Part shown: piece after piece, positions 1 through 16,307 of the stretch
How the letters are laid out: the number at the start of each line of letters is the position of its first letter
Position numbering within the stretch: position 1 is the first letter of the stretch
DNA from: an uncultured Verrucomicrobiota bacterium
GTDB taxonomy: Bacteria > Verrucomicrobiota > Verrucomicrobiia > Chthoniobacterales > JACTMZ01
NCBI GenBank assembly: GCA_903953565.1
Contig: CAJBKE010000021.1
Location: 1-56,603 of the forward strand
Reading direction: 5' to 3'
DNA: 56,603 nucleotides
Translations under genes and position numbers: made by a program
The notes under the pieces: model-generated
Told to the model about the DNA's origin: nothing
Database searches by the model: none
The model's input: only the letters and a program-made list of their open reading frames with translations

Positions 1-1188
1 GGCGTTTACGCGGCCAACGACCTGCTCATGTTTTTCCAGAACCCTGCAGGAACCACCGGCACAGACCAGCTTGCCTATTTCAATCTTGGCAGCACCTACA
101 ACGTGTTCCGCGATGCGGCCACACCCAGCTCAGGAGCTTTTGGTTCCACCATCTCTTTGGGCAATATCAACTCCATTCTCACCTCCACCTACGGCGCGGA
201 CTGGGCAAGTTTGTCCTCCTCGATTTTCTTCGCGGCCAACGGGCAAAATGGCTCGACGTCCATAACCGCGACGAGCACTCAAAATGGCGACTATGCGCGC
301 ACGGTGTATATCACCAAGCCTCGCACGTCGGCCGGTTCCGTCGGCCAAGCCAATTCCTCCTCGCCGCTTTATGCGCCCGCGCAAACAGCCGTGGCCAGCC
401 AAATTGACGGGGCCAACAATATGCGTGGTATCACCCAACCGGGGGCGACCAACGTCAGCGAGACGCTGCTCGACGGCTACAACCCGTTTTTCAACGGCAA
501 CCCTGCAACAGCCTACGGCGCAATCAACGGTGGTCTGATGGGTTCCATCACCAGTTCGTCATACACATTCGGTTCCGTGAGCAACATCGTCGGAGCGCTC
601 GACCTTTATCGTGTTGCCAAGACGAGTGGAACCGGCACGACGAGCGCGAGCATCTGGCAAAACTCCAACAACATTGCCGCGACCTTCTCCAATGACTTCG
701 GATTAGCCGGGGGTGGCTCCGCTGCCGCTTACTACCTGGGAACTATCACGCTCAGCTCGGATGGGTCCGTAAACTTTGTCGCGAGCAGCGACGAACCGCC
801 TCCTCCTGCGAATGATTACTCCCTCTGGGCCTCCGGATACCCGGGTGCAAACCTGACCGACAAGGAGGGTGACTATGACGGTGACGGCTTCAAAAACGTG
901 GCCGAATACTCTTTCGGGACCGACCCGACAAAAGGCAATGCTTCGCTGACTACGACGACGGTCGTTTCGAATAATCTGGTTGTTTCATTCCAGCAGCGCA
1001 CCGGCCCGACCAATCAAATTCCCTCCTACATTGCGGTCCGAGCCGGCGATTTGGCTTCGGCCTTCACCAATAACCAGACGGTTCCCTTTTCGACCAATAC
1101 CAACACCGGCTATTTGCCCGCGTTCGTGACAAATCCGCTTTCCGGCGGGAAGAGTTTCTACCGCATCCGGGCAACACTGCCGCAGTAG
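1..1188 (+). CDS. Secreted protein, 3' part (5' end outside window)
   Basis: The reading frame is open from base 1, so the gene begins upstream; 395 codons are visible. The protein is rich in Ser, Thr, Asn, Gly and Ala with almost no charged runs, as in exported surface or autotransporter-like proteins. Near codons 275-310 there is an acidic 'DKEGDYDGDGFKNVAEYSFGTDPT' type segment, split here as DYDGDGFKN and EYSFGTDPT, which resembles a calcium-binding thrombospondin-type-3/EF-hand repeat often placed before the C-terminus of verrucomicrobial exported proteins. The C-terminus ends in 'SFYRIRATLPQ', a form common to such proteins. No enzymatic motif is visible. The role is unknown; extracellular location is inferred from composition. 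Confidence 0.75.
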   Translation, partial: GVYAANDLLMFFQNPAGTTGTDQLAYFNLGSTYNVFRDAATPSSGAFGSTISLGNINSILTSTYGADWASLSSSIFFAANGQNGSTSITATSTQNGDYARTVYITKPRTSAGSVGQANSSSPLYAPAQTAVASQIDGANNMRGITQPGATNVSETLLDGYNPFFNGNPATAYGAINGGLMGSITSSSYTFGSVSNIVGALDLYRVAKTSGTGTTSASIWQNSNNIAATFSNDFGLAGGGSAAAYYLGTITLSSDGSVNFVASSDEPPPPANDYSLWASGYPGANLTDKEGDYDGDGFKNVAEYSFGTDPTKGNASLTTTTVVSNNLVVSFQQRTGPTNQIPSYIAVRAGDLASAFTNNQTVPFSTNTNTGYLPAFVTNPLSGGKSFYRIRATLPQ

Positions 1189-2323: not shown

Positions 2324-3199
2324 TTACTTCAGCGCTTCAAGAGCCAGTTCGTTGACCGAGACCGGTTGACGCTGCAGAAGGGTGGAGACGTGGGTCTCGC
2401 GGTTCAGCGCGGCGCGCTGGTTGCGCAACAAAGCCGCGATCTCGCCTTTGACCTCATCCAACGGCGCGGGTCCGGCCTCGCGCACGTCTTGCAGGAGCAG
2501 AATATGGTATCCGGAGCGTCCGGCCACCGGTGCGGAGATTTGGCCCTTGGAAAGGCCGGCCACCGCAGTGCGGATCTCCGGCGTGATTTCGGCCTCGGCC
2601 AGCCAGCCCAGCTCGCCGCCGCGTGCGGCGGATGCGGTGTCGTTGCTGTTGCGTTTGGCCAATGCGGAGAACTCACCCGGTTCGTCTTTCAAGGTGTCGG
2701 CGATTTCCTGAGCGCGCTTGCGGGCGGCCTCTTTGTCGTCGTCCGCGGCGATGAAGATTTGCGCCACGCGGTAACGTTTGGGCAGCTTCAGCTGCTCTTT
2801 TTCCGCCGCATAGACCTTCGTAATCTCGTCGTCCGACGGATAGTCGTCCGGCACCTGCCCCACCTCGGCGAGATAGCTCTCGACGAGGTATTGGTCGCGC
2901 AGACGGGCCAGTCCGGCCACGGTCTGCGGTTTCTTGTCCCATCCGGCTTCGGTCGCGTCCTGCAGGACGGCGCGATTGACCAGGATGGAGCGGACGAAGC
3001 GGGTGAGGGCGGCCTTGTCCGCGGTGAGGGCGGTGCGGTCGGTAGCGGGCAAGCCCTCGAGGAACGGACGGATTTCCGCGGCGGTGACTTCGCGGTCGCC
3101 GATTTTGGCCACAACGGCATCTTCGGCTTGGAGCGGGGAACCGGGGCCGAAAAAGGCCATGGCGAGGGTGAGGAGGGTGAGCATTTTGGGTGTTTTCAT
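2324..3199 (-). CDS. Periplasmic parvulin-type peptidyl-prolyl isomerase
   Basis: A 291-residue product with a signal peptide (MKTPKMLTLLTLAMAFFGPG..., cleavage probably after 'PLQA'). An N-terminal SurA/PrsA-like helical part runs to about residue 140 ('VVAKIGDREVTAAEIRPFL', 'YLAEVGQVPDDYPSDDEI'). The parvulin domain follows with 'YRVAQIFIAADDD', 'FSALAKRNSND', 'GGELGWL' and 'GRSGYHILLLQDV'. It should help fold outer-membrane barrels or other exported proteins. It is the last gene of the envelope operon and its ATG overlaps the upstream coiled-coil gene by four bases, fitting a chaperone for the barrels encoded upstream. The longer frame running to 3541 was not used because its extra 114 residues lie inside the neighbour in another frame. 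Confidence 0.9.
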   Translation of the reverse strand: MKTPKMLTLLTLAMAFFGPGSPLQAEDAVVAKIGDREVTAAEIRPFLEGLPATDRTALTADKAALTRFVRSILVNRAVLQDATEAGWDKKPQTVAGLARLRDQYLVESYLAEVGQVPDDYPSDDEITKVYAAEKEQLKLPKRYRVAQIFIAADDDKEAARKRAQEIADTLKDEPGEFSALAKRNSNDTASAARGGELGWLAEAEITPEIRTAVAGLSKGQISAPVAGRSGYHILLLQDVREAGPAPLDEVKGEIAALLRNQRAALNRETHVSTLLQRQPVSVNELALEALK

Positions 3200-3870
3200 C
3201 GGTTGGAAGGTGCGGGGGTGGCTGCGGCACTCGCCGGGGCAGGCGCCTGCGGAGCACCGGGTAGATTGGCGGCGCGCAGGCGCGTTTCGAGATCCTGCAT
3301 GATGGTTTGGAGCGAGGCGCGGTTGACGCTGATGAACGGTTCGCGGGCTAACATGGTCCGGCCGAAGCTGTGCGCGGCGTAGCGGTCGAGGATTTCGTCG
3401 GCGATGGTCTTCATCTCGGTCAGCTTGACCTGCTGCTCGGCCACGGTGCGTTCGAGCACGGTGTTGCGGCCCCTGGCCTTGGCCAGTTCGTATTCCGATT
3501 TGCGGGTGCGCTCGGTGAGCGCCCGGTAGTCCTTTTCCCACTTGGCCACTTGCGCGTTGAGGGCAATGGCTTTGTCCTCGACCTGGGCCATGGCGGCGCG
3601 CAGTTCGGTCGTCTGGTTGGCCGCCGTGCTGCGCTCCTCGACCAACTGCGCCTGCACGGCGGCAGTTTCTTTTTTGGATTTTTCGGCGGCCATTTCAGCC
3701 TGCACCGAGGCGGCTTCCATCTCGGCGGTCTTGGCCTGCGCTTCGCGCAGCTGGAGCATGGTGTTGCGCAGGGCGTCGCGCAGCTGGGCTTCGACGGCCC
3801 CAGCCTCTTCGGCCATGGCGGAGGTCAAGCCGGCGATCGACACGACGAGAAGGAAAACAATGGTGCGCAT
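3196..3870 (-). CDS. Secreted coiled-coil protein
   Basis: A 224-residue protein with a signal peptide (MRTIVFLLVVSIAGLTSAMA). From about residue 25 to 160 it is almost uninterrupted heptad-like helix rich in Ala, Glu, Lys and Gln, for example 'LREAQAKTAEMEAASVQAEM'. This is followed by a short globular piece ('FGRTMLAREPFISVNRASL') and a Pro/Ala-rich tail. A periplasmic structural or adaptor role is inferred; no family was recognised. It lies 8 bp after the porin gene and overlaps the isomerase gene, so it is clearly part of the operon. It could bridge outer-membrane components to the cell wall, or act as a chaperone. Confidence 0.8.
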   Translation of the reverse strand: MRTIVFLLVVSIAGLTSAMAEEAGAVEAQLRDALRNTMLQLREAQAKTAEMEAASVQAEMAAEKSKKETAAVQAQLVEERSTAANQTTELRAAMAQVEDKAIALNAQVAKWEKDYRALTERTRKSEYELAKARGRNTVLERTVAEQQVKLTEMKTIADEILDRYAAHSFGRTMLAREPFISVNRASLQTIMQDLETRLRAANLPGAPQAPAPASAAATPAPSNR

Positions 3871-3878
3871 GGTGCAGT

Positions 3879-6224
3879 TCAGAATTTGGCCCCGAGATCG
3901 AGTTGCAGGATGTTCATGTCATACTGCGGCCCGGCGATGCTTTCCGAGCCGAACCAGCGGAAGCCGAGAAATACATGCGGCGACAGGGCGAGTCGCGCCG
4001 CCACGGTGAAACCCTTCATGTTGCTGCCGCCCAGGCCGAAGTCGGAGTCATTGAATCCGTCGACCACCGCGTCGGAGCCGATCCAGCGGTAACCGAAAGA
4101 CATCTGCCACGCGCCGAGTTTGTCGAGTTCGGCATGGCCGGCTTCAAGGTCAACCAACCATGCGTCGGGGCTGCCCTCGAAACTGCCATCGGTCCCGAGG
4201 TTGTTGACCGCAACCTCGTTGATGGCCGAAGAATTGAAGGCGAGGTTGCGGACAAACTCGCTGACCAGCGAGACGCGCACGGGGTCCCACCCGTCGTAGT
4301 TCAGTTTTCCGGTGAAGGCCAAGTTCTGGAATGGTGTGGCCAGACCGAAATATTGGTAGTCCATGAGAAGCGCGGTGGAGCCCGGCGGAGGGATCACGTT
4401 GCGCAAAGTGCGGTAGGTGTTGCCCTTCTGCGCGAAGGAGGGACGGCTGTTGTCGGTGTCGCCGGCGTCATCCTCGGAATACTGCACGTAAGGAGAGGAG
4501 AGTTGGCCCTCGATGTTGTAGAAGCTGTAGTAAGCGGCCGCGAGTTGCGTGCTCCAGTTCTTCGTGATGTTGACCTGCGTGCCGCCCTGGATCGCGAAAA
4601 GATATTTGTCATAGCTGGGAAACTTCTCCGCCTGGTTCGAAGAAAAATTCAGATCCGTGTTGAACACCGGGAAAGCGCCGGCCACAACCGAGGGAATGAC
4701 GATGTCCTCGTGGTTGTAGGTCAAGCGGATGGCCGCGCCGTCAAACCCGAGGTCGTTGTCGAAGATGATCGGCGTGGAGAAGAACGGGTTGTCGAAGCGC
4801 CCGAACCAGAGGGTCATGCCGGCATCACCCAACTCACCGGGCCCCGCCATGGAAGAAGGCGCACCGACCGCGAGCATGCCCGTGTCCGGTCCGCCGCCCC
4901 CGAGGTCGTAGCGGATGTATGCGCGATCCAGCCAGATGGCGTATTTGCTGAACTGGCCGCCCTGACCTTGGTTGGCCAGTCCGAAGGACTGGTTGGCTGT
5001 GACTGGGGAGTTGTTGTCGCCGGTGGCGACGCGCACACCGGCACTGAAATTGTCGCCCAACTCGATGCCCGTGCCGAGGCGGACGAGCATGCGGTAGCGG
5101 TTGCGGTTCTGGTTGGCGTTCCACTGGGGTGGGGGATTGAGGGCCAAGGCGGACGGCAAAATGTTGATCGGTGAACCCGTATTGATGGCGTTGAAGTTCA
5201 CGAAGGCGTTGTCGAGATTGGAGTTGTTGGAGGGATACAAGTCCGCCTCGTAGCGGAAGCGGATCTCGCCTTCCGGCTTGAGGCGGGCCAAAAGCGTCGG
5301 GAGGCCCGGGGGCGTTTTCTGTTCGCCGCCGCCAAGCCGCAGGCCGAGTTCGCGCCGGATGTCCTCCGTGAGTTGCGCGCGCACCGGGGCCGGAACGTAG
5401 GTCACGCGCATGTCCTCCTCCATTTCGCGCCGGGAGGCATCGACCGCGCTCGTGCCCGTCTGCTGCGCGAGGGCTTGGTCGGTCATGGTTTGCACCGCAG
5501 CGATTTGGGCGATGGCGAACATGTCGGATTCGTTCTGCACTTTCTGCGCTTCGGCCTCCGCTTGGGCCTGTGTGACCATGGTCCTGGCGTCGTCTGCCGT
5601 GAGCACGCCGCGCTGAACTAGTTTGTTGATCAGGTTGACCACGATGTTTCCGGTCGGTGTGGAGGCCGCGTTCGAGCCGGCGGCGACATTCGGAGGGGCG
5701 GGAGAAGCGCTCGTTTCGGCGGCGGCATCTCCTCCCGCCGGCGCGGCCAGCGGCGCAGCGTCTGCATCGGCATAGGGTGCCACCGTCCAGTCGGTCTCTC
5801 CGGCTTCGGCGGGCGCCGCAGGGTCAACTTTCACGGCAGCCATCTCCGCGGAGGTTTCCTGCAGAACTTCGGGTGCAGTCGCTGTCTCGGAAGACGGAAC
5901 GGGAGCGGATTCTTCCCCGGAAGCATCCGCCGCGGCGGTCTGGTCTCCTGCCGGCGAAGGGCCGGGTGTGCCAGGATGCAAAGCGTGCCCGTTGGCAAAT
6001 TGCGGGTCGACCACCAAAACCTCCGCTGCCAGTTTTGCGGATCCCTCGGCGGCACCGTTGTTCTGCATCCGGCGCTCCGCCTCCTGCAAGACCAAGCGCT
6101 CGGCCAGAGCGAGCTCTTCCGGCGTCGGGGCGGCCGAAGCAGCGGCGCCCGTTTCGGCGGCAGTTCGCAGGGCGCCGGTCCCGAGCAGAAAAGCTGCCAG
6201 AAATGGAAGGAGGCGGCTGTTCAT
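3879..6224 (-). CDS. Putative porin (Porin_5-like outer-membrane barrel)
   Basis: 781 residues. Signal peptide 'MNSRLLPFLAAFLLGTGALR', then about 230 residues of Ala/Pro/Glu-rich low-complexity sequence. Next comes 'LINKLVQRGVLTADDA', a segment typical of putative porins in Bacteroidetes and Verrucomicrobiota, and a helical stretch to about residue 390. The rest looks like a large barrel with alternating aromatic strands ('GEIRFRYEADLYPSNN', 'NRYRMLVRLGTGIEL', 'FTVAARLALSPHVFLGFRWF') and ends in '...LQLDLGAKF', with the terminal Phe expected for BAM-assembled barrels. ATG overlaps the tonB stop by four bases. The N-terminal linker is unusually long. Substrate unknown; phosphate-linked uptake is inferred only from operon context. 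Confidence 0.85.
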   Translation of the reverse strand: MNSRLLPFLAAFLLGTGALRTAAETGAAASAAPTPEELALAERLVLQEAERRMQNNGAAEGSAKLAAEVLVVDPQFANGHALHPGTPGPSPAGDQTAAADASGEESAPVPSSETATAPEVLQETSAEMAAVKVDPAAPAEAGETDWTVAPYADADAAPLAAPAGGDAAAETSASPAPPNVAAGSNAASTPTGNIVVNLINKLVQRGVLTADDARTMVTQAQAEAEAQKVQNESDMFAIAQIAAVQTMTDQALAQQTGTSAVDASRREMEEDMRVTYVPAPVRAQLTEDIRRELGLRLGGGEQKTPPGLPTLLARLKPEGEIRFRYEADLYPSNNSNLDNAFVNFNAINTGSPINILPSALALNPPPQWNANQNRNRYRMLVRLGTGIELGDNFSAGVRVATGDNNSPVTANQSFGLANQGQGGQFSKYAIWLDRAYIRYDLGGGGPDTGMLAVGAPSSMAGPGELGDAGMTLWFGRFDNPFFSTPIIFDNDLGFDGAAIRLTYNHEDIVIPSVVAGAFPVFNTDLNFSSNQAEKFPSYDKYLFAIQGGTQVNITKNWSTQLAAAYYSFYNIEGQLSSPYVQYSEDDAGDTDNSRPSFAQKGNTYRTLRNVIPPPGSTALLMDYQYFGLATPFQNLAFTGKLNYDGWDPVRVSLVSEFVRNLAFNSSAINEVAVNNLGTDGSFEGSPDAWLVDLEAGHAELDKLGAWQMSFGYRWIGSDAVVDGFNDSDFGLGGSNMKGFTVAARLALSPHVFLGFRWFGSESIAGPQYDMNILQLDLGAKF

Positions 6225-6937
6225 GGTCGGGCGGCACTGATGCGCATGACGATGGGCATGGGCATGCCTTCGGGAGGTGGATCTGGCAGTTGCAGGCCGT
6301 TCAAAATTTCCCGCTGCAGGGCTTGGTCGACCTCGGGGTCGCCGGATGAACCTTCCAGCGAGGCGCGCGTCACGCGTCCGGAGGCATCGACCCAAATGCG
6401 CGCTTTGATGCTGAGCGTGGAGGAGCGGGTGGCGCGGTGACTGCGCACGGCGGTCGAGACCGCATTCTGCACGCGCCCGGCATACCAACCGAACCGCGAA
6501 GCGTTGCCCCCGCCGCCCGTGCCGCGGCCGCCGATCATGCCGCCGCCACCTTTGCCGACCAGGCCGAAGCCGTCGGGAGGACCGTCGCCTTGGATGTTCG
6601 AGCCCATGGGAGCGGGCGCTTCGGGCTCGGGTTCGGGCGGCGAATCGGGGGTGGTTTCCTCGACGAATTCCGGGGCGTCCGGCGGCGGTTCGACCGGGTC
6701 GGGCGGGGCCGGCGGCGGAGTCGGTGGCGGAGTGGGCGGTGGTGGAGGCGGAGGCAACACCGGCATGACGTTAACAATCGTCGACGTCTTTTTCTTCGGT
6801 TTGCTTTCCCCGCCGAGCAAAAAGAAAGCCCCCGCACCCACGGCGACAAGCGCCGCCGCACCGACCGCGATCCAGACAAGGGGCGGTCTTTTGCTTCCGT
6901 TCTCGTTGGAGCCGGAGGATGGCGTCAGAGAGGGCAT
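6221..6937 (-). CDS. TonB-like energy transducer
   Basis: 238 residues with one transmembrane helix at about 21-43 ('WIAVGAAALVAVGAGAFFLL'). A proline-rich spacer of about 50 residues follows ('LPPPPPPPTPPPTPPPAP'), then a Glu/Pro stretch, a Gly-rich linker, and a C-terminal TonB fold with 'IKARIWVDASGRVTRA' and 'QREILNGLQLPDPPPEGMPM'. TonB transmits proton-motive energy from ExbB/ExbD to outer-membrane proteins. It lies 3 bp after exbD and overlaps the porin start. No TonB-dependent receptor with a plug domain is encoded in the window, so its outer-membrane partner is not evident. Called TonB-like rather than TonB because such short forms also work in gliding or secretion systems. Confidence 0.9.
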   Translation of the reverse strand: MPSLTPSSGSNENGSKRPPLVWIAVGAAALVAVGAGAFFLLGGESKPKKKTSTIVNVMPVLPPPPPPPTPPPTPPPAPPDPVEPPPDAPEFVEETTPDSPPEPEPEAPAPMGSNIQGDGPPDGFGLVGKGGGGMIGGRGTGGGGNASRFGWYAGRVQNAVSTAVRSHRATRSSTLSIKARIWVDASGRVTRASLEGSSGDPEVDQALQREILNGLQLPDPPPEGMPMPIVMRISAARP

Positions 6938-6940
6938 CGT

Positions 6941-7345
6941 CTACTTTTCCGGCGCCACGGTGGCGAGGCCGACTTGGGTGATACCGAGGCGCCCGCAGAC
7001 ATCAAGCACGTTCATGATGCCCTCGTATTGCGTCTGGCGGTCGCCGCGGACAACCACGGGGAACTCGGGGATCTTGGCCTTGTGTTCTTTCAACCTTGCC
7101 TCGAGCTCGGCCAATGTGACCGGCACGGTATCCAGAGCGATCTTGCCTTGGGTGTTGACCGTGATGGCCCGGCTCTTCGGGCCGCTCAGATCGGCCGGCT
7201 TGCTCGAGGATTTGGGCAAATCGACCTTCATACCCTGCACCCCGGCTGTGGTCATGATGATAAAAATGAGCAGCAGCACGAGGTAGAGGTCCACCATCGG
7301 CGTAACGTTGATGTCGTCGTAGCTCTTGTCGTCTCCGGCATCCAT
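6941..7345 (-). CDS. exbD: ExbD/TolR family proton-channel subunit
   Basis: 134 residues. The N-terminal cytoplasmic tip 'YDDINVTPMVDLYLVLL' leads into the single membrane helix, and Asp19 is the conserved membrane acid that carries protons in ExbD/TolR/MotB proteins. A periplasmic domain follows, with 'KSRAITVNTQGKIALD' and 'FPVVVRGDRQTQYEGIM'. It should pair with the ExbB homologue encoded just before it (2 bp gap) and feed TonB encoded 3 bp after. The start 'MDAGDDKSYDD' was chosen because the longer frame extends back through the exbB coding region. Confidence 0.93.
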   Translation of the reverse strand: MDAGDDKSYDDINVTPMVDLYLVLLLIFIIMTTAGVQGMKVDLPKSSSKPADLSGPKSRAITVNTQGKIALDTVPVTLAELEARLKEHKAKIPEFPVVVRGDRQTQYEGIMNVLDVCGRLGITQVGLATVAPEK

Positions 7346-7347
7346 GA

Positions 7348-9285
7348 TTAGTTCAGGTTGGCCACGGCGGGGTCGTTGTCGGGCGGCATGAAGCGTGGGG
7401 GCAGCCCCTCGCCCGGAGGCGGATAAGCCTCGGCAATCTTGGTGACAAACTCGTCGATGAAGACCTGCATCGAGGCGATGACATCTTTGATCCGGGAGCT
7501 TAAAACGCTGTACATGAAGAGGGCGGGAATGGCCACAAAGAGGCCCACGGTGGTGGCGAGCAGAGCGCTGGCGATACCCGGGGCGATCGAGTTGACATCG
7601 ACTTCGCCCGACTTGGCGATGATGGCAAAGGTGATCATGACCCCCACGACCGTGCCGAGCAGACCGACGTAGGGGCCGCCCGCGATGCTCGTGGTCAAGA
7701 TAACCAAGCCCTTGTTCAAAGATTGTCGCTCGCGCACCATGCCTGCGTCCAGAGAGGCGCGGATGGCTTGGATGGAGCGCACGGAGAGCCCGCTGTGGCG
7801 TTCCGGGTCGGAGATGCGGTGGCGGATTTCTTTGATTCCGAGGTGATACAAGTGGTAGCAGGGCGAATTGAGCATTCCCCGGATGCGCGCCTGCTGTTTT
7901 GTGGCTCCCTTGGCCTGCATGGCTTCCATCCGTAGGTTGGTCAGCGAGTCCGGGTCGTCGGCATCCAGCACGGCCAGATCGCCCGAGACTTCGCCCCACT
8001 GGCGGAGGAACTCATCGTCGCCTTTCATCAAGGCGCGCAAGCGCACGAATTTGGCCACCGCAACCGACCATCCGAGGATCATCATGATCACGCAGACCGC
8101 CACGGCGATCCAGCCGTCGAACATCATGTTCTTGGCAATGTCGCCGAAGAGCATGACGTGCTCGAGCGCTCCACCGTGTCCGCCCCCGGCGGCGCCGCCA
8201 CCTTCCATTTCGGCGAAGGCCAGGACTTTGCCGGCGGCCTCGGTGCCCGACTGGTTGACGGCAAGGAGGCGGAGGTCCGCGGCGGGAAGCGCCGCCTTGT
8301 AGATTTGGAATTCGTCAAACTCGCCGAGGAAGCGACCCTCCGAGCTTGCGGCGGGGTCCGGGCCGCCGATGAACATGGTGCCATCGCCCGAGGGCAGTGG
8401 GGCGTTCACCGCGCCAACCTCCTTGCCATCGAGGTAAAGCGACATCTTGCCTCCTGACGCGGTCACCGCGATCTGCCGCCACGTCGCATCGGCCACCGTT
8501 TCGGTGGCGATGGCACGAGGTTGTCCCTCGACTTCAAGGAAAGGCGCGCCGCCGGCCGCGAGTCCCAGCCGGAAATTTCCCGCGCCGGGTCGCGCGAAAA
8601 GGATGGCTTCGTTCGCCGTCGAGATCGGCTTGATCCAGAAAACCAGCGTCAACTCGCCGCCCGCGCTCCAGGCATTCCCCGCCGCACCGGGAATAGAAAC
8701 CGGCTCGCGTCCGACCAAGCGCAGACCGTCGGCCACGATGGTCCCTTCGGAGATGTTGCCGGCGCTCCCCGCATGGTTGGTGTTCGGGGTAAGGTCTTGC
8801 GGCGGCGTGCCGCGTTCGTTCAGGTGGTAAACGATGACCGCATTGTCGGGGTAGGTTTTGGCCGGATCGGGCCCGCCTTCGCCCGCGGGAGCCGCGTTGC
8901 CGTAGTAGAGGAAAAATTCCGCTGGGCCGCCTTCGCCCGCGGCAGGGACTTTCACCCAGGCGAAACCCTCGGCCATGAGCGGGTCGAACTTTTCGAGGTG
9001 GAACGGCAGCACCTTGCCGTCCGCCGCGACGAAGCGCAGGTCGCTGCCGTCAGGCTGGACCATTTCGAAGGGGAGATTGCCCGGATGCAGGCGCACGAGG
9101 AGGACGTTTTCGCCCGGTTGCCCCTTGATCTCCGCACCTTCCGCCGCCGGATCGAGGGTGAATTTGGTGCGCCCTGTCCATTCCACTTTCCACCAATCGG
9201 GAGCGGTCTCCGCAGCCTGCGCGGCCACGGCCAGCGCGGCGAGGAGTGTAACGGTCAGGCGTTTGATGAAAGGTTGCGTTTTCAT
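7348..9285 (-). CDS. ExbB/TolQ/MotA channel protein with N-terminal DUF2341/LamG-like periplasmic domains
   Basis: 645 residues, nearly three times the usual ExbB length. A signal peptide (MKTQPFIKRLTVTLLAALAVAAQA) is followed by a DUF2341-like region at about 60-140 ('LRFVAADGKVLPFHLEKFD', 'AEFFLYYGN') and a concanavalin/LamG-like domain at about 160-350 ('ELTLVFWIKP', 'WRQIAVTASGGKMSLYLDGK', 'LGEFDEFQIYKAAL'). The ExbB part has helix 1 near 390-415 ('FDGWIAVAVCVIMMILGW') and helices 2-3 near 530-595 ('GGPYVGLLGTVVGVMITF', 'SALLATTVGLFVAIPAL'). The exported domains would bind a carbohydrate or protein in the periplasm, possibly gating or localising the proton channel. The gap to tpsB is 1 bp and to exbD 2 bp. 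Confidence 0.92.
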   Translation of the reverse strand: MKTQPFIKRLTVTLLAALAVAAQAAETAPDWWKVEWTGRTKFTLDPAAEGAEIKGQPGENVLLVRLHPGNLPFEMVQPDGSDLRFVAADGKVLPFHLEKFDPLMAEGFAWVKVPAAGEGGPAEFFLYYGNAAPAGEGGPDPAKTYPDNAVIVYHLNERGTPPQDLTPNTNHAGSAGNISEGTIVADGLRLVGREPVSIPGAAGNAWSAGGELTLVFWIKPISTANEAILFARPGAGNFRLGLAAGGAPFLEVEGQPRAIATETVADATWRQIAVTASGGKMSLYLDGKEVGAVNAPLPSGDGTMFIGGPDPAASSEGRFLGEFDEFQIYKAALPAADLRLLAVNQSGTEAAGKVLAFAEMEGGGAAGGGHGGALEHVMLFGDIAKNMMFDGWIAVAVCVIMMILGWSVAVAKFVRLRALMKGDDEFLRQWGEVSGDLAVLDADDPDSLTNLRMEAMQAKGATKQQARIRGMLNSPCYHLYHLGIKEIRHRISDPERHSGLSVRSIQAIRASLDAGMVRERQSLNKGLVILTTSIAGGPYVGLLGTVVGVMITFAIIAKSGEVDVNSIAPGIASALLATTVGLFVAIPALFMYSVLSSRIKDVIASMQVFIDEFVTKIAEAYPPPGEGLPPRFMPPDNDPAVANLN

Positions 9286-9286
9286 G

Positions 9287-10957
9287 TCAGAATTCTCCCC
9301 ACGTGCGGAAAACCACCACCGGCGTGCCGGCCGGGCGGTAACTGCCGGCTTCGTTGCTGCCCTGCGCGATCTGCGGGATGCCGACGTAGATCGCGCCGTT
9401 GAGCCAGTCGAAAATCTTGGCTAGCGCCCCGAAGCCGACGCTGAGCAGATTGAAATTGGTTGTCTGCTCGGGCAGCGGATCGTTGATAAAAACCGAGCCG
9501 GCATCGACGAAGCCAAGGAGACGGAGTTCGTTTTTGTCCTCCTTCAGCCACCAGCGGAGGAGCGAGGGCGAGCGCACCTCGAGGCTTCCGGCGATGGCGC
9601 TGTCGCCCACCGCCTGCGATTCGTAATAGCCGCGCACCGTGTTGAGCCCGCCCACCGAAAACTGCTCGCTGTCGACCAGCGCGTTATCCGTGGCTTGGCC
9701 CTGCAACACCGCCTTGAGCTGGAAATCTTCCCACAAGTCGTGTTCGTAGCTGGCCAGGCCGCGGAAATAAAAATAGTTGCCGTTGGCCGCGTAGCGCCGG
9801 TTGTCGAACTCCACCTCGCCGCTGCCCATGCCACGGAAATGCCAGTTGAGCGAACCGTCGAGTTGGAAACGGTAGTCTTTGCCCATCCAAAAACCGCCGT
9901 AACTCAGGATGAACGGGTAGTAGGTGACCGGCGAGGAATCGACCAGCTGGTTGTTGATCTCCAGCGACTGCTCGAAGCTTTTGTAGTCCAACCCGAAGGT
10001 TAAATTATGGAAAAGGCCGGCTTGCCGGGCGGGAAGTTCGGCGATCAGGCGCCCGCCGTAGATCTCGCCATTTCCCGTGGAGGCGCTGCCCCCGAGGGTG
10101 GACACTTCGCTGTTCTGGCGGATGGCCTGTGCCATGACGGTCAGCCAGTCGACCCGCGGCACCGGTGCGAGGTAGTAGCCCGAATAGACCAGGGCGTCAT
10201 TCGCGTCCTGCGGGGCGATCTGGAAAGCCGCCCCAATGGTGTGGCCGAGCTGCCAAAGATTGTCATAGCGCAGGGACGCGTCCAAGCGCAGCGGTGTGGT
10301 GTTCGCGCTGTAACGGTTGTTCAGCTCCACGCTGCCGTGCAGGGGCAGAGAGTCTTCGACCACCAACTCGACGTCGACCGATCCGGGCGCGGCCCCGGGC
10401 TTGAATTCCGGGGTGACGCGCAGGTCGGCCCGCTTGTTCAAGCGGATGACGTCTTTCTCCACATCCCGAAAGTTCGGCAAGGAGCCTTCGGCCAGCGAGG
10501 GCGCCAACCGCTTGATGCGTTCGATGTCGTGGAACTTGGAGCCACGGACGGTGAGGCGACCGACCGGCATTTCCTGGACACTGAGGATGATGACCCCTCT
10601 GGACGGGTCCTGTGGCGGGACATCGACCACCACGGTTTGGAACCCGGCGCGGTGGTATCTCTGCTCCAAAGCCGCGCGGGCCAGTTCCACATCCTCCGCG
10701 GTGCGGTCCGGCCCCAGATAAGCGTAGACCGCGTAGTCGACTTGTTCGCGCGGCAGGTGGCGCGATCCGATGACACGGTATTCACGGATGTAAAAGGATG
10801 GCGGCGGGAGGTTGTCCCCGGCTTGCTCGCTGGCCGGATCGGCTGTCGGAACGGCCATGGCCGTGTGCAGCGCCGCCATGAAGATGGCCCCCGACCAGCA
10901 TGCCCGTAGGCGAGTGGCGGGATGCCTCGTGCGGACGGAAGGGGCGGGCGCGAACAT
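9287..10957 (-). CDS. TpsB/ShlB/FhaC-like Omp85 outer-membrane transporter
   Basis: 556 residues. After a probable export signal (hydrophobic 'ACWSGAIFMAALHTAMA') come two POTRA domains, about 53-130 ('FYIREYRVIGSRHLPREQVD') and 131-205 ('VGRLTVRGSKFHDIERI'). A 16-strand-type barrel follows, with the Omp85 signature 'VRGYYESQAVGD' near residue 440 that tips the L6 loop, ending in aromatic Phe. Family members secrete a partner TpsA protein across the outer membrane. No TpsA gene is adjacent, and here it heads an operon with exbB-exbD-tonB and a porin. The ATG is 91 bp downstream of the pstB stop on the same strand, and a motif shared with the pstS promoter lies in that gap. Confidence 0.9.
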   Translation of the reverse strand: MFAPAPSVRTRHPATRLRACWSGAIFMAALHTAMAVPTADPASEQAGDNLPPPSFYIREYRVIGSRHLPREQVDYAVYAYLGPDRTAEDVELARAALEQRYHRAGFQTVVVDVPPQDPSRGVIILSVQEMPVGRLTVRGSKFHDIERIKRLAPSLAEGSLPNFRDVEKDVIRLNKRADLRVTPEFKPGAAPGSVDVELVVEDSLPLHGSVELNNRYSANTTPLRLDASLRYDNLWQLGHTIGAAFQIAPQDANDALVYSGYYLAPVPRVDWLTVMAQAIRQNSEVSTLGGSASTGNGEIYGGRLIAELPARQAGLFHNLTFGLDYKSFEQSLEINNQLVDSSPVTYYPFILSYGGFWMGKDYRFQLDGSLNWHFRGMGSGEVEFDNRRYAANGNYFYFRGLASYEHDLWEDFQLKAVLQGQATDNALVDSEQFSVGGLNTVRGYYESQAVGDSAIAGSLEVRSPSLLRWWLKEDKNELRLLGFVDAGSVFINDPLPEQTTNFNLLSVGFGALAKIFDWLNGAIYVGIPQIAQGSNEAGSYRPAGTPVVVFRTWGEF

Positions 10958-11016
10958 CAGCCCTCCAGACTACATCCCAGCCGGGCTCAGGGACAATCCG
11001 GAGATGTAAACTTTTC

Positions 11017-11039
11017 GTCACAACTGCCGCTTTCGACAG
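11017..11039 (-). promoter_or_regulatory. Putative PhoB-type operator before the tpsB-exbB-tonB-porin operon
   Basis: On the plus strand this reads GTCACAAC, ten bases, CGACAG; on the minus strand CTGTCG, ten bases, GTTGTGAC. The same arrangement with the same spacing lies upstream of pstS. The site ends 59 bases before the tpsB ATG, and a possible -10 TACATC follows it by about 9 bases, which is where activator-dependent Pho promoters carry their -10. Regulation by the PhoB encoded at 17228 is inferred; CTGTC is one half of the classical Pho box, but the second half differs from the enterobacterial form. Confidence 0.45.
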
Positions 11040-11048
11040 TGTTGTGGC

Positions 11049-11855
11049 CTAACCAAAGCGACCCGTGACGTAATCTTCGGTGCGCTTTTCTGTGGGGCTG
11101 GTGAAGATCTTGGCTGTTGGCCCCGTCTCGACCATTTGGCCGAGGTAGAAGAACGCGGTGCGATCCGAACAGCGTGTGGCCTGCTGCATGTTGTGTGTGA
11201 CGATGACGATGGTGTATTCGTTCTTCAACTCGCTGATCAATTGCTCGACCCGTGCGGTGGCAATCGGATCAAGGGCGGAACAAGGCTCGTCCATGAGGAG
11301 GACTTTCGGTCGGTTGGCAATGGCCCGGGCGATGCAAAGACGCTGCATTTGCCCGCCGGAGAGACCCAGGGCACTTTCGTGGAGGCGGTCCTTCACTTCG
11401 TCCCACAGGGCGGCACCGCGAAGGCTGCGCTCGGCGGCCTCTTCGAGCGTGGCGCGGTCGCGAACCCCGGAAATGCGCAGGCTGTAGATGACATTTTCGT
11501 AGATCGACTTGGCGAAAGGATTGGATTTTTGGAAAACCATTCCGACGAGGCGGCGCAGGGCGATGACCTCGAGGGACGAATCCCACAGGCTGCGCCCGGC
11601 CAGCGTGATGTTGCCGGTATGATGCACACCTTCGATCAGTTCGTTCATCCGGTTGAAATTGCGCAGCAAGGTGGTTTTGCCGCAACCGGACGGACCGATG
11701 AACGCCGTGACCTGCTTCTCGGGAACATCGAGATTGATGTCCTGCAGCGCCTGTTTCTTCCCGTAGAAAAAATTGAAGTCGCGCACCGAAATGATCGCAC
11801 GTGCCGCCGGTATCTCGGCGGCTGTCGTCGGTTCGGTGGAGGTCAGTTCGGTCAT
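11049..11855 (-). CDS. pstB: Phosphate ABC transporter ATPase PstB
   Basis: 268 residues with Walker A 'GPSGCGKTT', the Q-loop 'VFQKSNPF', signature '[15 protein letters not shown]' and Walker B '[13 protein letters not shown]'. '[10 protein letters not shown]' and '[17 protein letters not shown]' are typical PstB segments, and the C-terminal '[10 protein letters not shown]' closes the family. It hydrolyses ATP to drive phosphate import through PstA/PstC. It is the last gene of pstSCAB, 7 bp after pstA. The start at 'MTELTSTEP' was preferred over a longer frame that overlaps pstA. Confidence 0.97.
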
Positions 11856-11862
11856 CGGGGAA

Positions 11863-12753
11863 TCAGTGCTTTTTGCTGAAGACGAGTTGCGCCGTGATGT
11901 TCGTCGCGGTGACAAGGAGAACCAGCACGAGCGAGGCGGTCCAAGCCATTTTCACCTGATATTCGAACGGCATGGTGGAAAAATTGTAGATCAGGACGGA
12001 AAGCGAGGCCGTCGGCTCCATGAGCGAGGACATCCAAAACTGGCTGAAAAGGGCGGTGAAAACGAGCGGCGCGGTCTCTCCGGCGGCGCGGGCCACGGCG
12101 AGCATGACGCCGGTCATGATGGCTGGCATGGCTTCGGGCAGGACGATCCGGCCGATCGTCTGGAAGCGTGTGGCGCCGAGACCGTAGGAGGCTTCGCGGT
12201 AGGCGCGCTGCACGCCGAGCAGGGCCTGTTCGGAAGTGAGCAAAATCGTCGGCAGCATGAGCACGGCCAAGGCGAGGGCGCCGGCAAAGGCGGAAAATTT
12301 TCCCGTGGCCAGCACCACGGCGGCAAAAGCAAAGACCCCGCAGATGATCGAGGGGATGCCGGTGAGCAGTTTCGCCGTGAAGCGGGTGACCGCGGCCAGT
12401 CGTCCGTCCGGTTGGTACTCGCAGATGTAGATCGCGGCGAGGATGGCCGGCGGTGCGGACAGGGCCAGCCCGAGCCCGACCATGATCAGCGTGCCGACCA
12501 CCGCGTTGCCGAAGCCGCCGCCGGTCATGCCCGCGGCCGGAGGTAGTTGCGTGAAGATCGACCAATCGAGCAAAGGCAGTCCGTTCTTGGCCACGAGGTA
12601 AAGGATCGAGGCGAGAGGGATCAAGGCAGCGAAGGACAGCGCGATGCACAGGCCGGTCAGCAGGCGGTTGCCGAGCGATCGCCCGAGCAACTTCGTCGAT
12701 TCGACTCCGTTGTCTCCGAAGAATTCCGACGCGTGTGTGACCGGATTGTCCAT
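11863..12753 (-). CDS. pstA: Phosphate ABC transporter permease PstA
   Basis: 296 residues with about six membrane helices, for example '[20 protein letters not shown]' and '[20 protein letters not shown]'. The ATPase-docking EAA loop is '[14 protein letters not shown]' followed by '[14 protein letters not shown]'. '[14 protein letters not shown]' is the conserved PstA membrane motif. It forms the inner-membrane phosphate channel with PstC. The start '[12 protein letters not shown]' lies 5 bp after the pstC stop; the much longer frame upstream overlaps pstC and was rejected. Confidence 0.96.
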
Positions 12754-12758
12754 GCGCC

Positions 12759-13715
12759 TCAGCGGATGCCCGCCGTTCTCCTTTCCGTGTAACGCAGCAC
12801 GAGCTCTCCGGCAAAATTGACCGCGAGGGTCAGCGCGACGAGGACCAGCGCGGCATACATGAGCGCGGCGACTTGCATCCCCGCAGCCTCGCCGAATTGG
12901 TTGGCCAGCAGGCTGGCCAACGTGCCGGAAGGCGCGAAGAGCGACCATGAGAGGCGTGAACTGTTGCCGATGAGCATGGCCACGGCCATCGTCTCGCCCA
13001 TGGCGCGTCCGAGCGCGAGGATCGTGGCGGCCACGACGCCGGGTGCGGCTGTCGGAAGAATCACGCCGAAGATCGCTTCCCAACGCGTGGCGCCCAGCGC
13101 GTAGGCGCCTTCGCGCAAGGTGTGCGGAACGGCGACCAGCGAACTGCGCGAGATGGCTGTGATGGTTGGCAGCACCATGAGGGCGAGCACGATGCCTGCG
13201 GTGAGCAGCGAGTTTCCGTAGGCCGGTCCGGCGAGGAGAGGGATGTGACCGAAGCGCTCGGAGGTCCATGTGCCGAGGGATTGCACGATCGGGATGACCA
13301 CGAAAATACCCCACAGCCCGTAGACCACGCTGGGGATGGCGGCGAGAAGTTCGACCACGAAGCGCACCAACTGGCGCGCGGGCAAAGGGAGGAAATCTTC
13401 GCTGAGAAAAATCGCGATGGCCAGTCCAGGCGGGAACGCGAGGATCAGCGCGATCAGCGCGGTCGCACCGGTGCCGACGAGAAAGGGCAACACGCCGTAG
13501 CGGTCGCGGTTGGGTTGCCATTGCGCGTTGGTCAGGAAACCGAGCCCGAATTTATCCAAGGCAGGTTTCGCTTCCTGGAAGACCTCCCAGAAAATCCAGC
13601 CGAGCACGAAGGCCACAGCCGCCGCCGCCACCGCGCAGACCCAGAGGAAAAGATCCGGTCCGCGTCGTCCGTGCACTCCGGGGATACCGGTCGCGCTGGC
13701 TGTGTTGAGCGCCAT
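12759..13715 (-). CDS. pstC: Phosphate ABC transporter permease PstC
   Basis: 318 residues. The first helix is at about 22-45 ('LFLWVCAVAAAAVAFVLGWI'), followed by the periplasmic loop 'FGLGFLTNAQWQPNRDRYGV' that marks PstC, and further helices including 'ELLAAIPSVVYGLWGIF'. The EAA loop 'REGAYALGATRWEAIFG' contacts PstB. It forms the phosphate-translocating pore together with PstA. It is located 21 bp after pstS in the same operon. Confidence 0.96.
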   Translation of the reverse strand: MALNTASATGIPGVHGRRGPDLFLWVCAVAAAAVAFVLGWIFWEVFQEAKPALDKFGLGFLTNAQWQPNRDRYGVLPFLVGTGATALIALILAFPPGLAIAIFLSEDFLPLPARQLVRFVVELLAAIPSVVYGLWGIFVVIPIVQSLGTWTSERFGHIPLLAGPAYGNSLLTAGIVLALMVLPTITAISRSSLVAVPHTLREGAYALGATRWEAIFGVILPTAAPGVVAATILALGRAMGETMAVAMLIGNSSRLSWSLFAPSGTLASLLANQFGEAAGMQVAALMYAALVLVALTLAVNFAGELVLRYTERRTAGIR

Positions 13716-13736
13716 GGAAATCGGCGGGGGCTTGCC

Positions 13737-14738
13737 TTACTCGATCGAGGACAAAGCCGCGTTGGCCTTGGCCACAACCGACTCGGGCAGGGGGATGTAG
13801 CCGAGTTCGGTGGCAAAGGACTGCCCTTCGGTCAGCCCGTAGGTCACGAAATCTTTCAGCGCTTTGAGCTTCGCCGCATCGCTATACTTCTTGTAGAGCA
13901 GCAGCCACGAAAATGTCGTGATGGGATACGCTTCGGGTGTCGCGGGATCGACCGGCCAGATGCGGAGATTTTCCGGCAACTCGACCGAGGCCAGCGCGGC
14001 CGCGCCGCTCTCCGGCGTGGGCGCGACGAAGTTGCCGGATTTGTTTTCGATCGAAGCCACGGAAAGTTTGTTCTGCTCGGCGTAGCCGAATTCCACGTAG
14101 CCGATCGTGCCCGGGGATTGTTTGATCAGTGCGGTGACACCTTCGTTGCCCTTGCCGCCGACCCCGACGGGAAAGGTTACCGACTTGTCGAAGCCGACTT
14201 CTTCGTCGAATTCCGGGCTGATCGCCGCCAGGTGCTGCGTGAAGACGAACGTCGTGCCGCTGCCGTCGGAACGGTAGGCGACATTGATGGCCTGTGCGGG
14301 CAGGGGAATGTCGGGGTTGGCCGAGACGATGGCCGGATCATTCCACTTGGTGATCTTGCCGAGAAAAATTCCAGCCAAGGCGGCACGGGTCAGTTTCAGA
14401 TTAGGCACGCCTTCCAGATTGTAGGCAAGGACCACACTGCCCGCGGTGGCGGGGACAAGCACGGCGCCGCGCGGGGATTTGGCCATGTCTTCGTCGGTCA
14501 TGGCGGCATCACTCGCGCCGAAGTCGACCACTCCCTGCAGGAAATTTTTCACCCCGGCACCACTGCCAACCGACTGGTAGTTCACTTTGATCGACGGGAC
14601 CTGCTTGTTGTATTCGACCGCCCAGCGTTGATAGATCGGGGCGGGGAAGGTTGCGCCGGCGCCGGAAAGTGGTTGGGCCTGCGCTGCTCCGGCAAGGGCG
14701 GCGAGGAAAAGGACAGGAGTGAGGAAAACGTTTTTCAT
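13737..14738 (-). CDS. pstS: Periplasmic phosphate-binding protein PstS
   Basis: 333 residues with signal peptide 'MKNVFLTPVLFLAALAGAAQA'. Mature start 'QPLSGAGATFPAPIYQRW', then 'QSVGSGAGVKNFLQGVVDFG' and 'ASDAAMTDEDM', the family's phosphate-contact regions; 'YRSDGSGTTFVFTQHL' supplies the second contact set with its Arg-Ser-Asp-Gly-Ser-Gly. 'PITTFSWLLLYKKYSD' is typical near the C-terminus. It captures phosphate and delivers it to PstCA. It is the first gene of the operon and is preceded by the putative PhoB site at 14814. The long upstream extension of the frame overlaps phoU on the other strand and was rejected. Confidence 0.97.
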   Translation of the reverse strand: MKNVFLTPVLFLAALAGAAQAQPLSGAGATFPAPIYQRWAVEYNKQVPSIKVNYQSVGSGAGVKNFLQGVVDFGASDAAMTDEDMAKSPRGAVLVPATAGSVVLAYNLEGVPNLKLTRAALAGIFLGKITKWNDPAIVSANPDIPLPAQAINVAYRSDGSGTTFVFTQHLAAISPEFDEEVGFDKSVTFPVGVGGKGNEGVTALIKQSPGTIGYVEFGYAEQNKLSVASIENKSGNFVAPTPESGAAALASVELPENLRIWPVDPATPEAYPITTFSWLLLYKKYSDAAKLKALKDFVTYGLTEGQSFATELGYIPLPESVVAKANAALSSIE

Positions 14739-14813
14739 AGCACGATCGGCAAGGGTGGATTTTCGCCCTTTCCCCGGCGCGAAAGAAGCGAAAAGAAAAT
14801 TCGTGGCGTTTTT

Positions 14814-14836
14814 GTCACAACCGGGTGCCGCGACAG
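14814..14836 (-). promoter_or_regulatory. Putative PhoB-type operator between pstS and phoU
   Basis: Reads GTCACAAC, ten bases, CGACAG on the plus strand, the same as the site before tpsB. It lies 75 bases upstream of the pstS ATG and 55 bases upstream of the phoU ATG, so it could serve either divergent gene. The ten central bases differ entirely between the two sites while both ends are identical, as expected for protein contacts. No clear -10 could be assigned for pstS. PhoB binding is inferred from location and from the CTGTC half-site. Confidence 0.5.
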
Positions 14837-14891
14837 AGAGGAATACCATGGCTTGCCTGCCGGGCGAGCGGCCCATAAGTTGCCTCTCATT

Positions 14892-15581
14892 ATGGATCTG
14901 GCCACCGCACGGCATACTCTGGGTGACTTCGACGACGCACTGCGCTCGCTGCGCGACAGTGTCCTCATGATGGCCTCGCTGACCGAGCGCATCATCTCCG
15001 CAGCGGCCGAAGGATTGTTTTCCCGCAATTTCGAGGCCTGCGAACGGGTCATTGCCGATGACTCGGAAATCGACTCCTTGGAGAAATCCGTCGACGAAGC
15101 CGGGGTCGCCATTTTGGTGCGCTTCCAACCTCTGGCCAACGATCTCCGCGAGGTTGTCGCGGCCATGAAGGTCAGTGGCAATCTCGAGCGTGTGGCCGAC
15201 CAAGCCGTGAGCATCGCGCGGCGCGCCCGCCGGCTCAACGAGTCGTCCGCTTTGCCCGAGACGGCCGGCCTGCGCGAAATGTTCGACCAATGCACGGGAA
15301 TCTTCCGCGATGGCATCCGCAGCTTCGCCGACCGCGATGAAGTCCTGGCCCGCGCCCTCAAAGAGCGCGACCGCCAACTCGACGCGCTGCAGCACCGTGT
15401 CATCGACGGACTGACTGCGCGCATGGCGGCGGATACCCCGCGAATCCGCGATTACCTCGACCTCGTGCTCGTCGCGCGCAATATCGAACGCATCGGCGAC
15501 CACGCGACCAATATCGCCGAGGATGCCGTCTTCGCCGCTTCGGCCGAGGACATCCGCCACACCGCGCCGCCCGCGGCTTGA
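14892..15581 (+). CDS. phoU: Phosphate signalling protein PhoU
   Basis: 229 residues forming two three-helix PhoU repeats. The metal-binding E/DxxxD-type motifs show as 'EIDSLEKSVDEAGVAIL' and 'VAAMKVSGNLERVADQAV' in the first half and 'LVLVARNIERIGDHATNI' in the second. PhoU links the Pst transporter to the PhoR sensor and keeps the Pho response off when phosphate is plentiful. It is transcribed divergently from pstS, unlike the common pstSCAB-phoU order. The start 'MDLATARHTLGDFD' matches the family N-terminus; the very long frame upstream is antisense to pst genes. Its stop is 4 bp from the end of the convergent DUF429 gene. Confidence 0.95.
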   Translation: MDLATARHTLGDFDDALRSLRDSVLMMASLTERIISAAAEGLFSRNFEACERVIADDSEIDSLEKSVDEAGVAILVRFQPLANDLREVVAAMKVSGNLERVADQAVSIARRARRLNESSALPETAGLREMFDQCTGIFRDGIRSFADRDEVLARALKERDRQLDALQHRVIDGLTARMAADTPRIRDYLDLVLVARNIERIGDHATNIAEDAVFAASAEDIRHTAPPAA

Positions 15582-15585
15582 GCGG

Positions 15586-16302: not shown

Positions 16303-16307
16303 GCGGA

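What the first reader, a model, noticed from the sequence alone, without database searches (positions are those of the whole stretch)
2324..10957. TonB-ExbB-ExbD operon built around an Omp85 barrel and a porin, without a TonB receptor or TpsA
Seen: seven minus-strand genes with gaps of -4 to 8 bp encode a TpsB-like POTRA barrel, an enlarged ExbB, ExbD, TonB, a putative porin, a periplasmic coiled-coil protein and a parvulin. Known: TpsB proteins normally sit next to a TpsA substrate, and TonB systems normally energise plug-bearing receptors; neither is encoded here. Inference: TonB may energise the TpsB-like or porin barrel, with the coiled-coil protein and isomerase as assembly partners, forming a proton-driven outer-membrane transport complex. 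Its place directly behind pstB suggests phosphate or phospho-compound traffic.
Basis: partly seen in the sequence, partly recalled or inferred. Interest (0 to 1): 0.72.

Follow-up and report, generated by a model that had tools for sequence, protein, structure and literature searches.

The report
Phosphate-controlled secretion operon with its own TonB
A gene cluster that looked like an outer-membrane pump with missing parts is a bacterial system for exporting one giant surface protein (encoded elsewhere in this genome), apparently switched on by phosphate shortage and regularly tied to an unusual TonB energy unit whose job nobody has tested.

Summary
In detail: seven minus-strand genes (2324-10957, gaps -4 to +8) encode TpsB, LamG-ExbB, ExbD, TonB, Porin_5, a coiled-coil protein and a parvulin. 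'Without TpsA' holds only locally. The genome has one TPS-domain protein, a 3,875-aa TPS+DUF3739 TpsA on another contig, and one TpsB, this one. Across 785 genomes of two phyla, full-length Porin_5 and DUF3739-TpsA occupy the same genomes: 12 of 12 (plus one weak TpsA hit elsewhere) and 19 of 19. The order recurs in the 80 best database loci, with TpsA directly downstream in 49 of 58. It matches the published Pseudomonas aeruginosa pdtB-exbB2-exbD2-tonB4-PA0696-PA0699 operon, which PhoB and sigma-VreI control and whose TonB and porin remain uncharacterised.

The pst neighbourhood is rare, but a Pho-box-like element, trained on pstS and tpsA promoters, lies upstream of tpsB in 24 of 48 other loci (random windows 1.5%). 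No Plug-domain receptor was found in the genome, so TonB probably serves a plugless target. Best reading: a phosphate-regulated two-partner secretion system with a dedicated TonB-ExbBD unit. What TonB energises is unproven.

The parts
9287..10957 (-). TpsB (ShlB/FhaC/CdiB-type Omp85 transporter, two POTRA domains plus barrel), the only ShlB-family protein found in the genome
   Evidence: ShlB 3e-17, POTRA_2 4.6e-13; AlphaFold model mean pLDDT 89.5; best PDB matches CdiB 6wim E 1.8e-26 and FhaC 4ql0 3e-24; single ShlB in genome
7348..9285 (-). ExbB with large N-terminal periplasmic DUF2341 + LamG/ConA-like region, then MotA/TolQ/ExbB channel domain
   Evidence: N-terminal region conserved across phyla; position of E. 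coli ExbB Glu176 is Ser here and Ser, Ala or Gly in the aligned members; channel threonines kept
6941..7345 (-). ExbD, proton-carrying Asp of the transmembrane helix kept (NVTPMVD)
6221..6937 (-). TonB-like protein (one TM, Pro-rich linker, TonB_2 C-terminal domain)
3879..6224 (-). Porin_5-family outer-membrane porin with an N-terminal low-complexity and helical extension, no plug
   Evidence: PF16930 7e-158; AlphaFold model, mean pLDDT 71.9 with the N-terminus disordered, resembles OmpM1/MOMP/OprB/OprO porins
3196..3870 (-). periplasmic coiled-coil protein (counterpart by position of PA0697)
   Evidence: conserved position in relatives
2324..3199 (-). SurA/PpiC-type parvulin peptidyl-prolyl isomerase (counterpart by position of PA0699)
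   Evidence: Rotamase 1.6e-22; frequent but not universal in relatives
11006..11023 (-). Pho-box-like element TTGTGAC-GAAA-AGTTTAC, 48 bp upstream of the tpsB ATG
   Evidence: counterpart in 24 of 48 other tpsB upstream regions, 1.5% in random windows of the same loci
14803..14820 (-). Pho-box-like element TTGTGAC-AAAA-ACGCCAC upstream of pstS (pstS ATG at 14738)
11049..14738 (-). pstS-pstC-pstA-pstB operon directly upstream (context; same arrangement seen only in the close relative L060)
28..1188 (+). secreted protein (open at the window start), distantly similar to the 'GDVLLGFYA' proteins found upstream of tpsB in relatives; possible accessory
   Evidence: membership weak (about 26% identity)

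Best explanation
This is the transporter half of a phosphate-controlled two-partner secretion (type Vb) system that comes with its own TonB-ExbB-ExbD unit. It is the verrucomicrobial form of the P. aeruginosa pdtB-exbB2-exbD2-tonB4-PA0696-PA0697-PA0699 operon. Steps. (1) Low phosphate activates a PhoB-type regulator that binds Pho-box-like sites upstream of pstS, tpsB and tpsA (inferred). (2) The 3,875-aa TpsA, encoded on another contig, is exported by Sec and kept unfolded in the periplasm by the coiled-coil protein and the parvulin (inferred from family and position). (3) TpsB, the only TpsB found in the genome, recognises the TPS domain of TpsA, the only TPS-domain protein found, and moves it to the cell surface (pairing strongly supported, secretion inferred). 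(4) The LamG-ExbB/ExbD/TonB unit uses the proton gradient to act on an outer-membrane partner that is not a plug receptor, most likely the co-inherited Porin_5 barrel, less likely TpsB. It either imports something that TpsA captures at the surface or drives and resets TpsA export (inferred, not shown).
For: Own genome: one TPS-domain protein, with DUF3739 at its C-terminus, and one TpsB; no Plug-domain receptor. Co-occurrence of full-length Porin_5 and DUF3739-TpsA: 12 genomes each in 388 Verrucomicrobiota, plus one weak DUF3739-only genome (Fisher 6e-22), and the same 19 of 397 Pseudomonadota (8e-33). Gene order conserved in the 80 best loci, TpsA directly downstream on the same strand in 49 of 58, and in Alpha-, Beta- and Gammaproteobacteria. 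The P. aeruginosa cluster has the same order and is PhoB/VreI-controlled and Pi-starvation induced. TpsB fold confirmed. Pho-box-like element upstream of pstS, tpsB and tpsA in this genome and of tpsB in 24 of 48 other loci. ExbD keeps its proton-carrying Asp.
Against: TpsA is not in this operon, so pairing in this genome rests on uniqueness and on relatives. No experiment shows that TonB takes part in TpsA secretion or porin function in any member; published insertion mutants in PA0690, PA0692, PA0695 and PA0696 showed no effect on VreI-induced virulence. TpsB secretion is held to need no external energy (PMC5422565). Some proteobacterial members lack a TpsB beside ExbB-ExbD-TonB-porin (L193, L199, L202, L203), and one (L204) shows no ExbBD-TonB hit in the stretch fetched. 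A plug helix before the POTRA domains is not predicted in the TpsB model. Half of the tpsB upstream regions lack a clear Pho-box-like site, and the site is untested. No P. aeruginosa sequence was compared directly.
Confidence: 0.85

Rival explanations
1. The TonB unit energises the Porin_5 barrel for uptake of a nutrient (for example a phosphorus compound) that the secreted TpsA captures at the surface, as HxuA and HxuC do for haem. TpsB only delivers TpsA.
For: Porin_5 and TpsA are co-inherited without exception in the samples; in some Pseudomonadota ExbB-ExbD-TonB-Porin_5 sits beside TpsA with no TpsB in between; HxuCBA precedent (PMC5422565); secreted PstS-like or DING-like phosphate-binding proteins sit nearby in several loci; Pho control.
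Against: The porin model is an ordinary porin-like barrel with no plug and no recognised TonB box; no substrate known.
Confidence: 0.4
2. The TonB unit drives secretion itself: TonB pulls on or resets TpsB, or frees TpsA from the periplasmic face, making a proton-motive-force-assisted type Vb system.
For: ExbB, ExbD and TonB are encoded directly after TpsB in nearly all loci; no plug receptor found in this genome; TonB-dependent protein secretion has a precedent in Myxococcus Oar/PopC (PMC6434023); the substrates are very large (frames of about 3,300-5,100 aa).
Against: Ordinary TpsB systems work without energy; TpsB shows no conserved N-terminal extension that could serve as a TonB contact.
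Confidence: 0.3
3. The TonB-like protein works as a TolA/GltJ-like envelope tether, with the LamG domain of ExbB sensing or binding envelope glycans, rather than as a transporter energiser.
For: ExbB scores best against TolQ and ExbD against TolR in NCBIfam, all below cut-off; LamG/ConA-like region in the periplasm; no plug receptor.
Against: Tight linkage to TpsA, TpsB and porin in two phyla points to outer-membrane traffic.
Confidence: 0.15
4. One reading: a TpsA-less TonB-driven complex carrying phosphate or phospho-compounds across the outer membrane.
For: pst neighbours in the window and L060, Pho-box-like element.
Against: A DUF3739-TpsA is present in every sampled genome that holds the module.
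Confidence: 0.05

Closest known systems
P. aeruginosa PUMA3/Pdt locus: pdtA-phdA-pdtB-exbB2-exbD2-tonB4-PA0696-PA0697-PA0698-PA0699-PA0700-PA0701 (PMC2729926, PMC4971064, PMC7035377)
   Same: Same order TpsB-ExbB-ExbD-TonB-porin-small protein-PpiC isomerase; TpsA transcribed apart from the TpsB operon; Pho-linked expression
   Different: No VreA/VreI/VreR, PhdA, YbjN or LysR genes beside the window operon; the window operon follows pstSCAB; TpsA lies on a different contig; relationship inferred through gene order and plasmid relatives, not through direct comparison with PAO1 sequence
Plasmid-borne copies in Methylosinus (L053), Klebsiella quasipneumoniae (L054) and Cupriavidus (L055)
   Same: Same genes and order, putative porin annotated, 30-40% identity; TpsA ('filamentous haemagglutinin family protein') beside the operon in L053 and L054
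   Different: Carry YbjN; L053 and L054 carry VreAIR-like regulators
Classical two-partner secretion (FhaB/FhaC, CdiA/CdiB)
   Same: TpsB fold, TPS domain with the NxNG motif, giant cysteine-poor substrate
   Different: No TonB, ExbBD or porin in the classical systems; TpsA here has a conserved helical N-terminal extension before the TPS domain and a DUF3739 C-terminal domain
HxuCBA of Haemophilus influenzae
   Same: TPS system linked to TonB-energised uptake
   Different: HxuC is a plug receptor; here there is a plugless porin and a dedicated TonB-ExbBD
Myxococcus Oar/PopC TonB-dependent secretion
   Same: TonB system linked to protein export
   Different: Oar is a TonB-dependent transporter; none found here

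Membership tests
PdtAB-ExbB2D2-TonB4-PA0696 kind (TonB-linked TPS cluster) | TpsB-ExbB-ExbD-TonB-porin-small protein-PpiC in one operon | tested here: met
   order of PA genes from PMC7035377
PdtAB-ExbB2D2-TonB4-PA0696 kind (TonB-linked TPS cluster) | partner TpsA in the genome | tested here: met
   one TPS+DUF3739 protein at C26:72766-84393
PdtAB-ExbB2D2-TonB4-PA0696 kind (TonB-linked TPS cluster) | Pho control | tested here: inconclusive
   Pho-box-like element; no binding or expression data
PdtAB-ExbB2D2-TonB4-PA0696 kind (TonB-linked TPS cluster) | VreAIR cell-surface signalling genes beside it (regulatory neighbour, not part of the core) | tested here: not met
   none seen in the window; present in proteobacterial relatives
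PdtAB-ExbB2D2-TonB4-PA0696 kind (TonB-linked TPS cluster) | direct sequence homology to the PAO1 proteins | not tested
   no PAO1 sequence was obtained; plasmid relatives with the same order were compared
Type Vb two-partner secretion | TpsB with two POTRA domains and Omp85 barrel | tested here: met
Type Vb two-partner secretion | TpsA with N-terminal TPS domain | tested here: met
   PF05860 4.9e-21; NxNG motif
Type Vb two-partner secretion | secretion of TpsA through this TpsB | not testable with these tools
   needs deletion and surface assay
Canonical TonB-dependent receptor system | plug-bearing receptor (PF07715) in operon or genome | tested here: not met
   no Plug domain found in the 95.7%-complete genome
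Phosphate-selective porin OprP/OprO | sequence membership of that porin family | tested here: not met
   the only Pfam match above cut-off is Porin_5; fold resembles many porins incl. OprO at low identity

The most novel reading that the evidence does not exclude
A two-partner secretion system whose export or function is powered by a dedicated TonB-ExbB-ExbD motor acting on a barrel without a plug. It would be a proton-motive-force-energised type Vb pathway, or a TonB-driven plugless porin, under phosphate control in at least two phyla.
Probability: 0.35. Interest if true: 0.85.

Novelty: new variant of a known kind. Interest (0 to 1): 0.6.

Why it matters
TPS export is held to need no energy, and TonB to serve plug receptors. 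Here a TonB-ExbBD unit goes with one TpsA class and one porin in two phyla, and sits in a genome in which no Plug-domain receptor was found. Such a genome is a clean setting to find out what TonB does when it has no classical receptor. It also ties a recurrent giant-protein class (DUF3739) to phosphate starvation well beyond Pseudomonas.

Tried and rejected
Rejected: absence of TpsA (found in trans); pst adjacency as the conserved feature (rare). The classical Pho-box consensus CTGTCAT-N4-CTGTCAT found nothing above chance in the window; an element shared by the pstS and tpsA promoters was used instead. A first split motif (CTGTCG-N11-TGTGAC) had only two exact copies in the genome, both in this window, but was dropped because it did not carry over to the L060 pstS promoter or to tpsA. 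A TonB box could not be assigned: the NVTxNLI motif near the porin N-terminus is conserved but may simply belong to its helical domain. Partial Porin_5 matches next to pst in other Verrucomicrobiota (among L041-L049) are a different, shorter porin without the module.
Full report
Observation. The seven genes are real and lie head to tail on the minus strand: tpsB 9287-10957, exbB 7348-9285, exbD 6941-7345, tonB 6221-6937, porin 3879-6224, coiled-coil 3196-3870, parvulin 2324-3199. Gaps are -4 to +8 bp. Family searches confirm each name: ShlB and POTRA_2, MotA_ExbB with DUF2341 and Laminin_G_3, ExbD, TonB_2, Porin_5, PpiC rotamase. The pstSCAB operon ends 91 bp upstream.

Conservation. In a sample of 388 Verrucomicrobiota, 12 genomes hold a full-length Porin_5 protein. 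The neighbourhoods fetched for these show the same order, cut only by contig ends or by a missing parvulin. The 80 best loci of a scan of 84,980 species genomes, nearly all Verrucomicrobiota, repeat it. On plasmids, Methylosinus, Klebsiella and Cupriavidus carry the same genes in the same order, with the isomerase placed differently in Cupriavidus. Twenty regions from 19 Pseudomonadota genomes show the module with local variation: some have no TpsB hit beside it, and one shows no ExbB, ExbD or TonB hit in the stretch fetched.

The missing TpsA. Directly downstream of the operon in relatives lies a giant frame (at least 2,400 aa within the stretch fetched) with a signal peptide and a TPS-type N-terminus. 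Of 58 loci with room downstream, 49 have it there on the same strand. The window genome has one TPS-domain protein, on contig C26: 3,875 aa, TPS domain 4.9e-21, DUF3739 1.1e-29. It has one ShlB-family TpsB, this one. DUF3739-TpsA and full-length Porin_5 mark the same genomes: 12 shared of 388 Verrucomicrobiota, with one extra weak DUF3739 hit, and the same 19 of 397 Pseudomonadota. Fisher tests give 6e-22 and 8e-33; relatedness of the genomes makes these nominal. So the operon serves a two-partner secretion system whose substrate is encoded in trans here. The close relative L060 also lacks TpsA beside the operon.

TpsB, porin and TpsA. The TpsB model (mean pLDDT 89.5) matches CdiB and FhaC best, with two POTRA domains and a barrel; a plug helix before the POTRA domains is not predicted. 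The porin model (mean pLDDT 71.9, long disordered N-terminus) resembles porins such as OmpM1, MOMP, OprB and OprO and has no plug. TpsA carries a conserved helical extension between signal peptide and TPS domain in both phyla (helix judged from sequence).

The energy unit. ExbD keeps the transmembrane Asp. ExbB keeps the two channel threonines, but the position of E. coli Glu176 is Ser here and Ser, Ala or Gly in the aligned members of this class, which share the large DUF2341-LamG region. Seven MotA_ExbB proteins exist in the genome, yet no Plug-domain receptor was found (the Plug model rings in the E. coli, Caulobacter and Bacteroides controls). PF00593 was not searched and the genome is 95.7% complete, so absence is probable rather than proven.

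Phosphate. pst or phoU genes lie within about 5 kb upstream of tpsB in 3 of 45 other loci (L060, L087, L094). That is more than an assumed 0.5% background would give (0.0015) but rare. A better link is an element WTGTGAC-N4-NNGTCAC (7-bp half sites, 11-bp period, as in Pho boxes). It occurs upstream of pstS (14803-14820), of tpsB (11006-11023, a weaker second half site) and 77 bp upstream of tpsA (C26:72671-72688). A matrix trained on two pstS sites and the tpsA site, not on any tpsB site, scores above the 99% level of dinucleotide shuffles upstream of tpsB in 24 of 48 other loci, mostly 60-125 bp before the approximate start. Random windows of the same loci pass in 6 of 402 (1.5%). The loci are related, so this is strong but not independent evidence. 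In P. aeruginosa the promoters of phdA-pdtB-exbB2D2-tonB4-PA0696-PA0701 and of pdtA bind PhoB; [quoted passage not shown] PdtA, PA0696 and PA0698 rise under phosphate limitation (PMC9769906).

Accessories. Upstream of tpsB, 16 other loci carry a secreted protein, also found elsewhere in the window genome, whose profile matches PstS (4exl 1.4e-6). About as many carry a second secreted family, several with PEP-CTERM-like ends. In Methylosinus the gene after TpsA is DING/PstS-like. This parallels the secreted alkaline phosphatases LapA and LapB beside PdtA in P. aeruginosa.

Interpretation. Shown by computation: a conserved, co-inherited module of TpsA, TpsB, ExbB, ExbD, TonB, porin and helpers in two phyla, with uniquely paired TpsA and TpsB in this genome. 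Inferred: phosphate control here, secretion of TpsA by this TpsB, and any role of TonB. TonB roles considered are action on the porin (0.4), on TpsB or TpsA export (0.3), and an envelope tether (0.15). The kind was first seen in P. aeruginosa; authors there call exbB2-exbD2-tonB4 a still uncharacterised putative TonB system and the function of PA0696-PA0700 unknown (PMC7035377). Literature searches found no description in Verrucomicrobiota, within an open-access library only.

Noticed in passing
window 7348-9285; alignment A5 around E. coli ExbB E176: In this ExbB class the glutamate of the channel helix (E. coli E176) is replaced by a small residue while the threonines and the ExbD Asp remain, which may mean an altered proton path.
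   Followed up: partly
L035, L037, L032, L034 and other loci, upstream of tpsB; own genome L168:919-2262: A secreted PstS-like protein family with no Pfam match recurs upstream of tpsB (profile hit to PstS 1.4e-6).
   Followed up: partly
own genome C26:68130, C26:71546, C26:87980, C22:2331, C22:4188, C22:4313: Further copies of the Pho-box-like element, near a response-regulator gene, a protein of the 'GVYAANDLLMFFQNP' family and a SEL1-like repeat protein; a candidate regulon.
   Followed up: partly
TpsA N-termini, e.g. L052:3-600, L035:12250-12900: A conserved Gln/Ala-rich stretch of about 25 residues, probably a helix, precedes the TPS domain in TpsA of both phyla; canonical TPS domains start soon after the signal peptide.
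   Followed up: partly
L193, L199, L202, L203: In some Pseudomonadota ExbB-ExbD-TonB-Porin_5 stand without a TpsB hit beside them, in three of them next to TpsA.
   Followed up: no
L041-L049: Several Verrucomicrobiota have a shorter Porin_5-like protein directly beside pstSCAB-phoU, perhaps a phosphate-related porin.
   Followed up: no
window 13737-19266: pstS, phoU, a PhoB-type regulator and a PhoR-type kinase lie together in the window, so the operon sits at the end of a Pho island.
   Followed up: no
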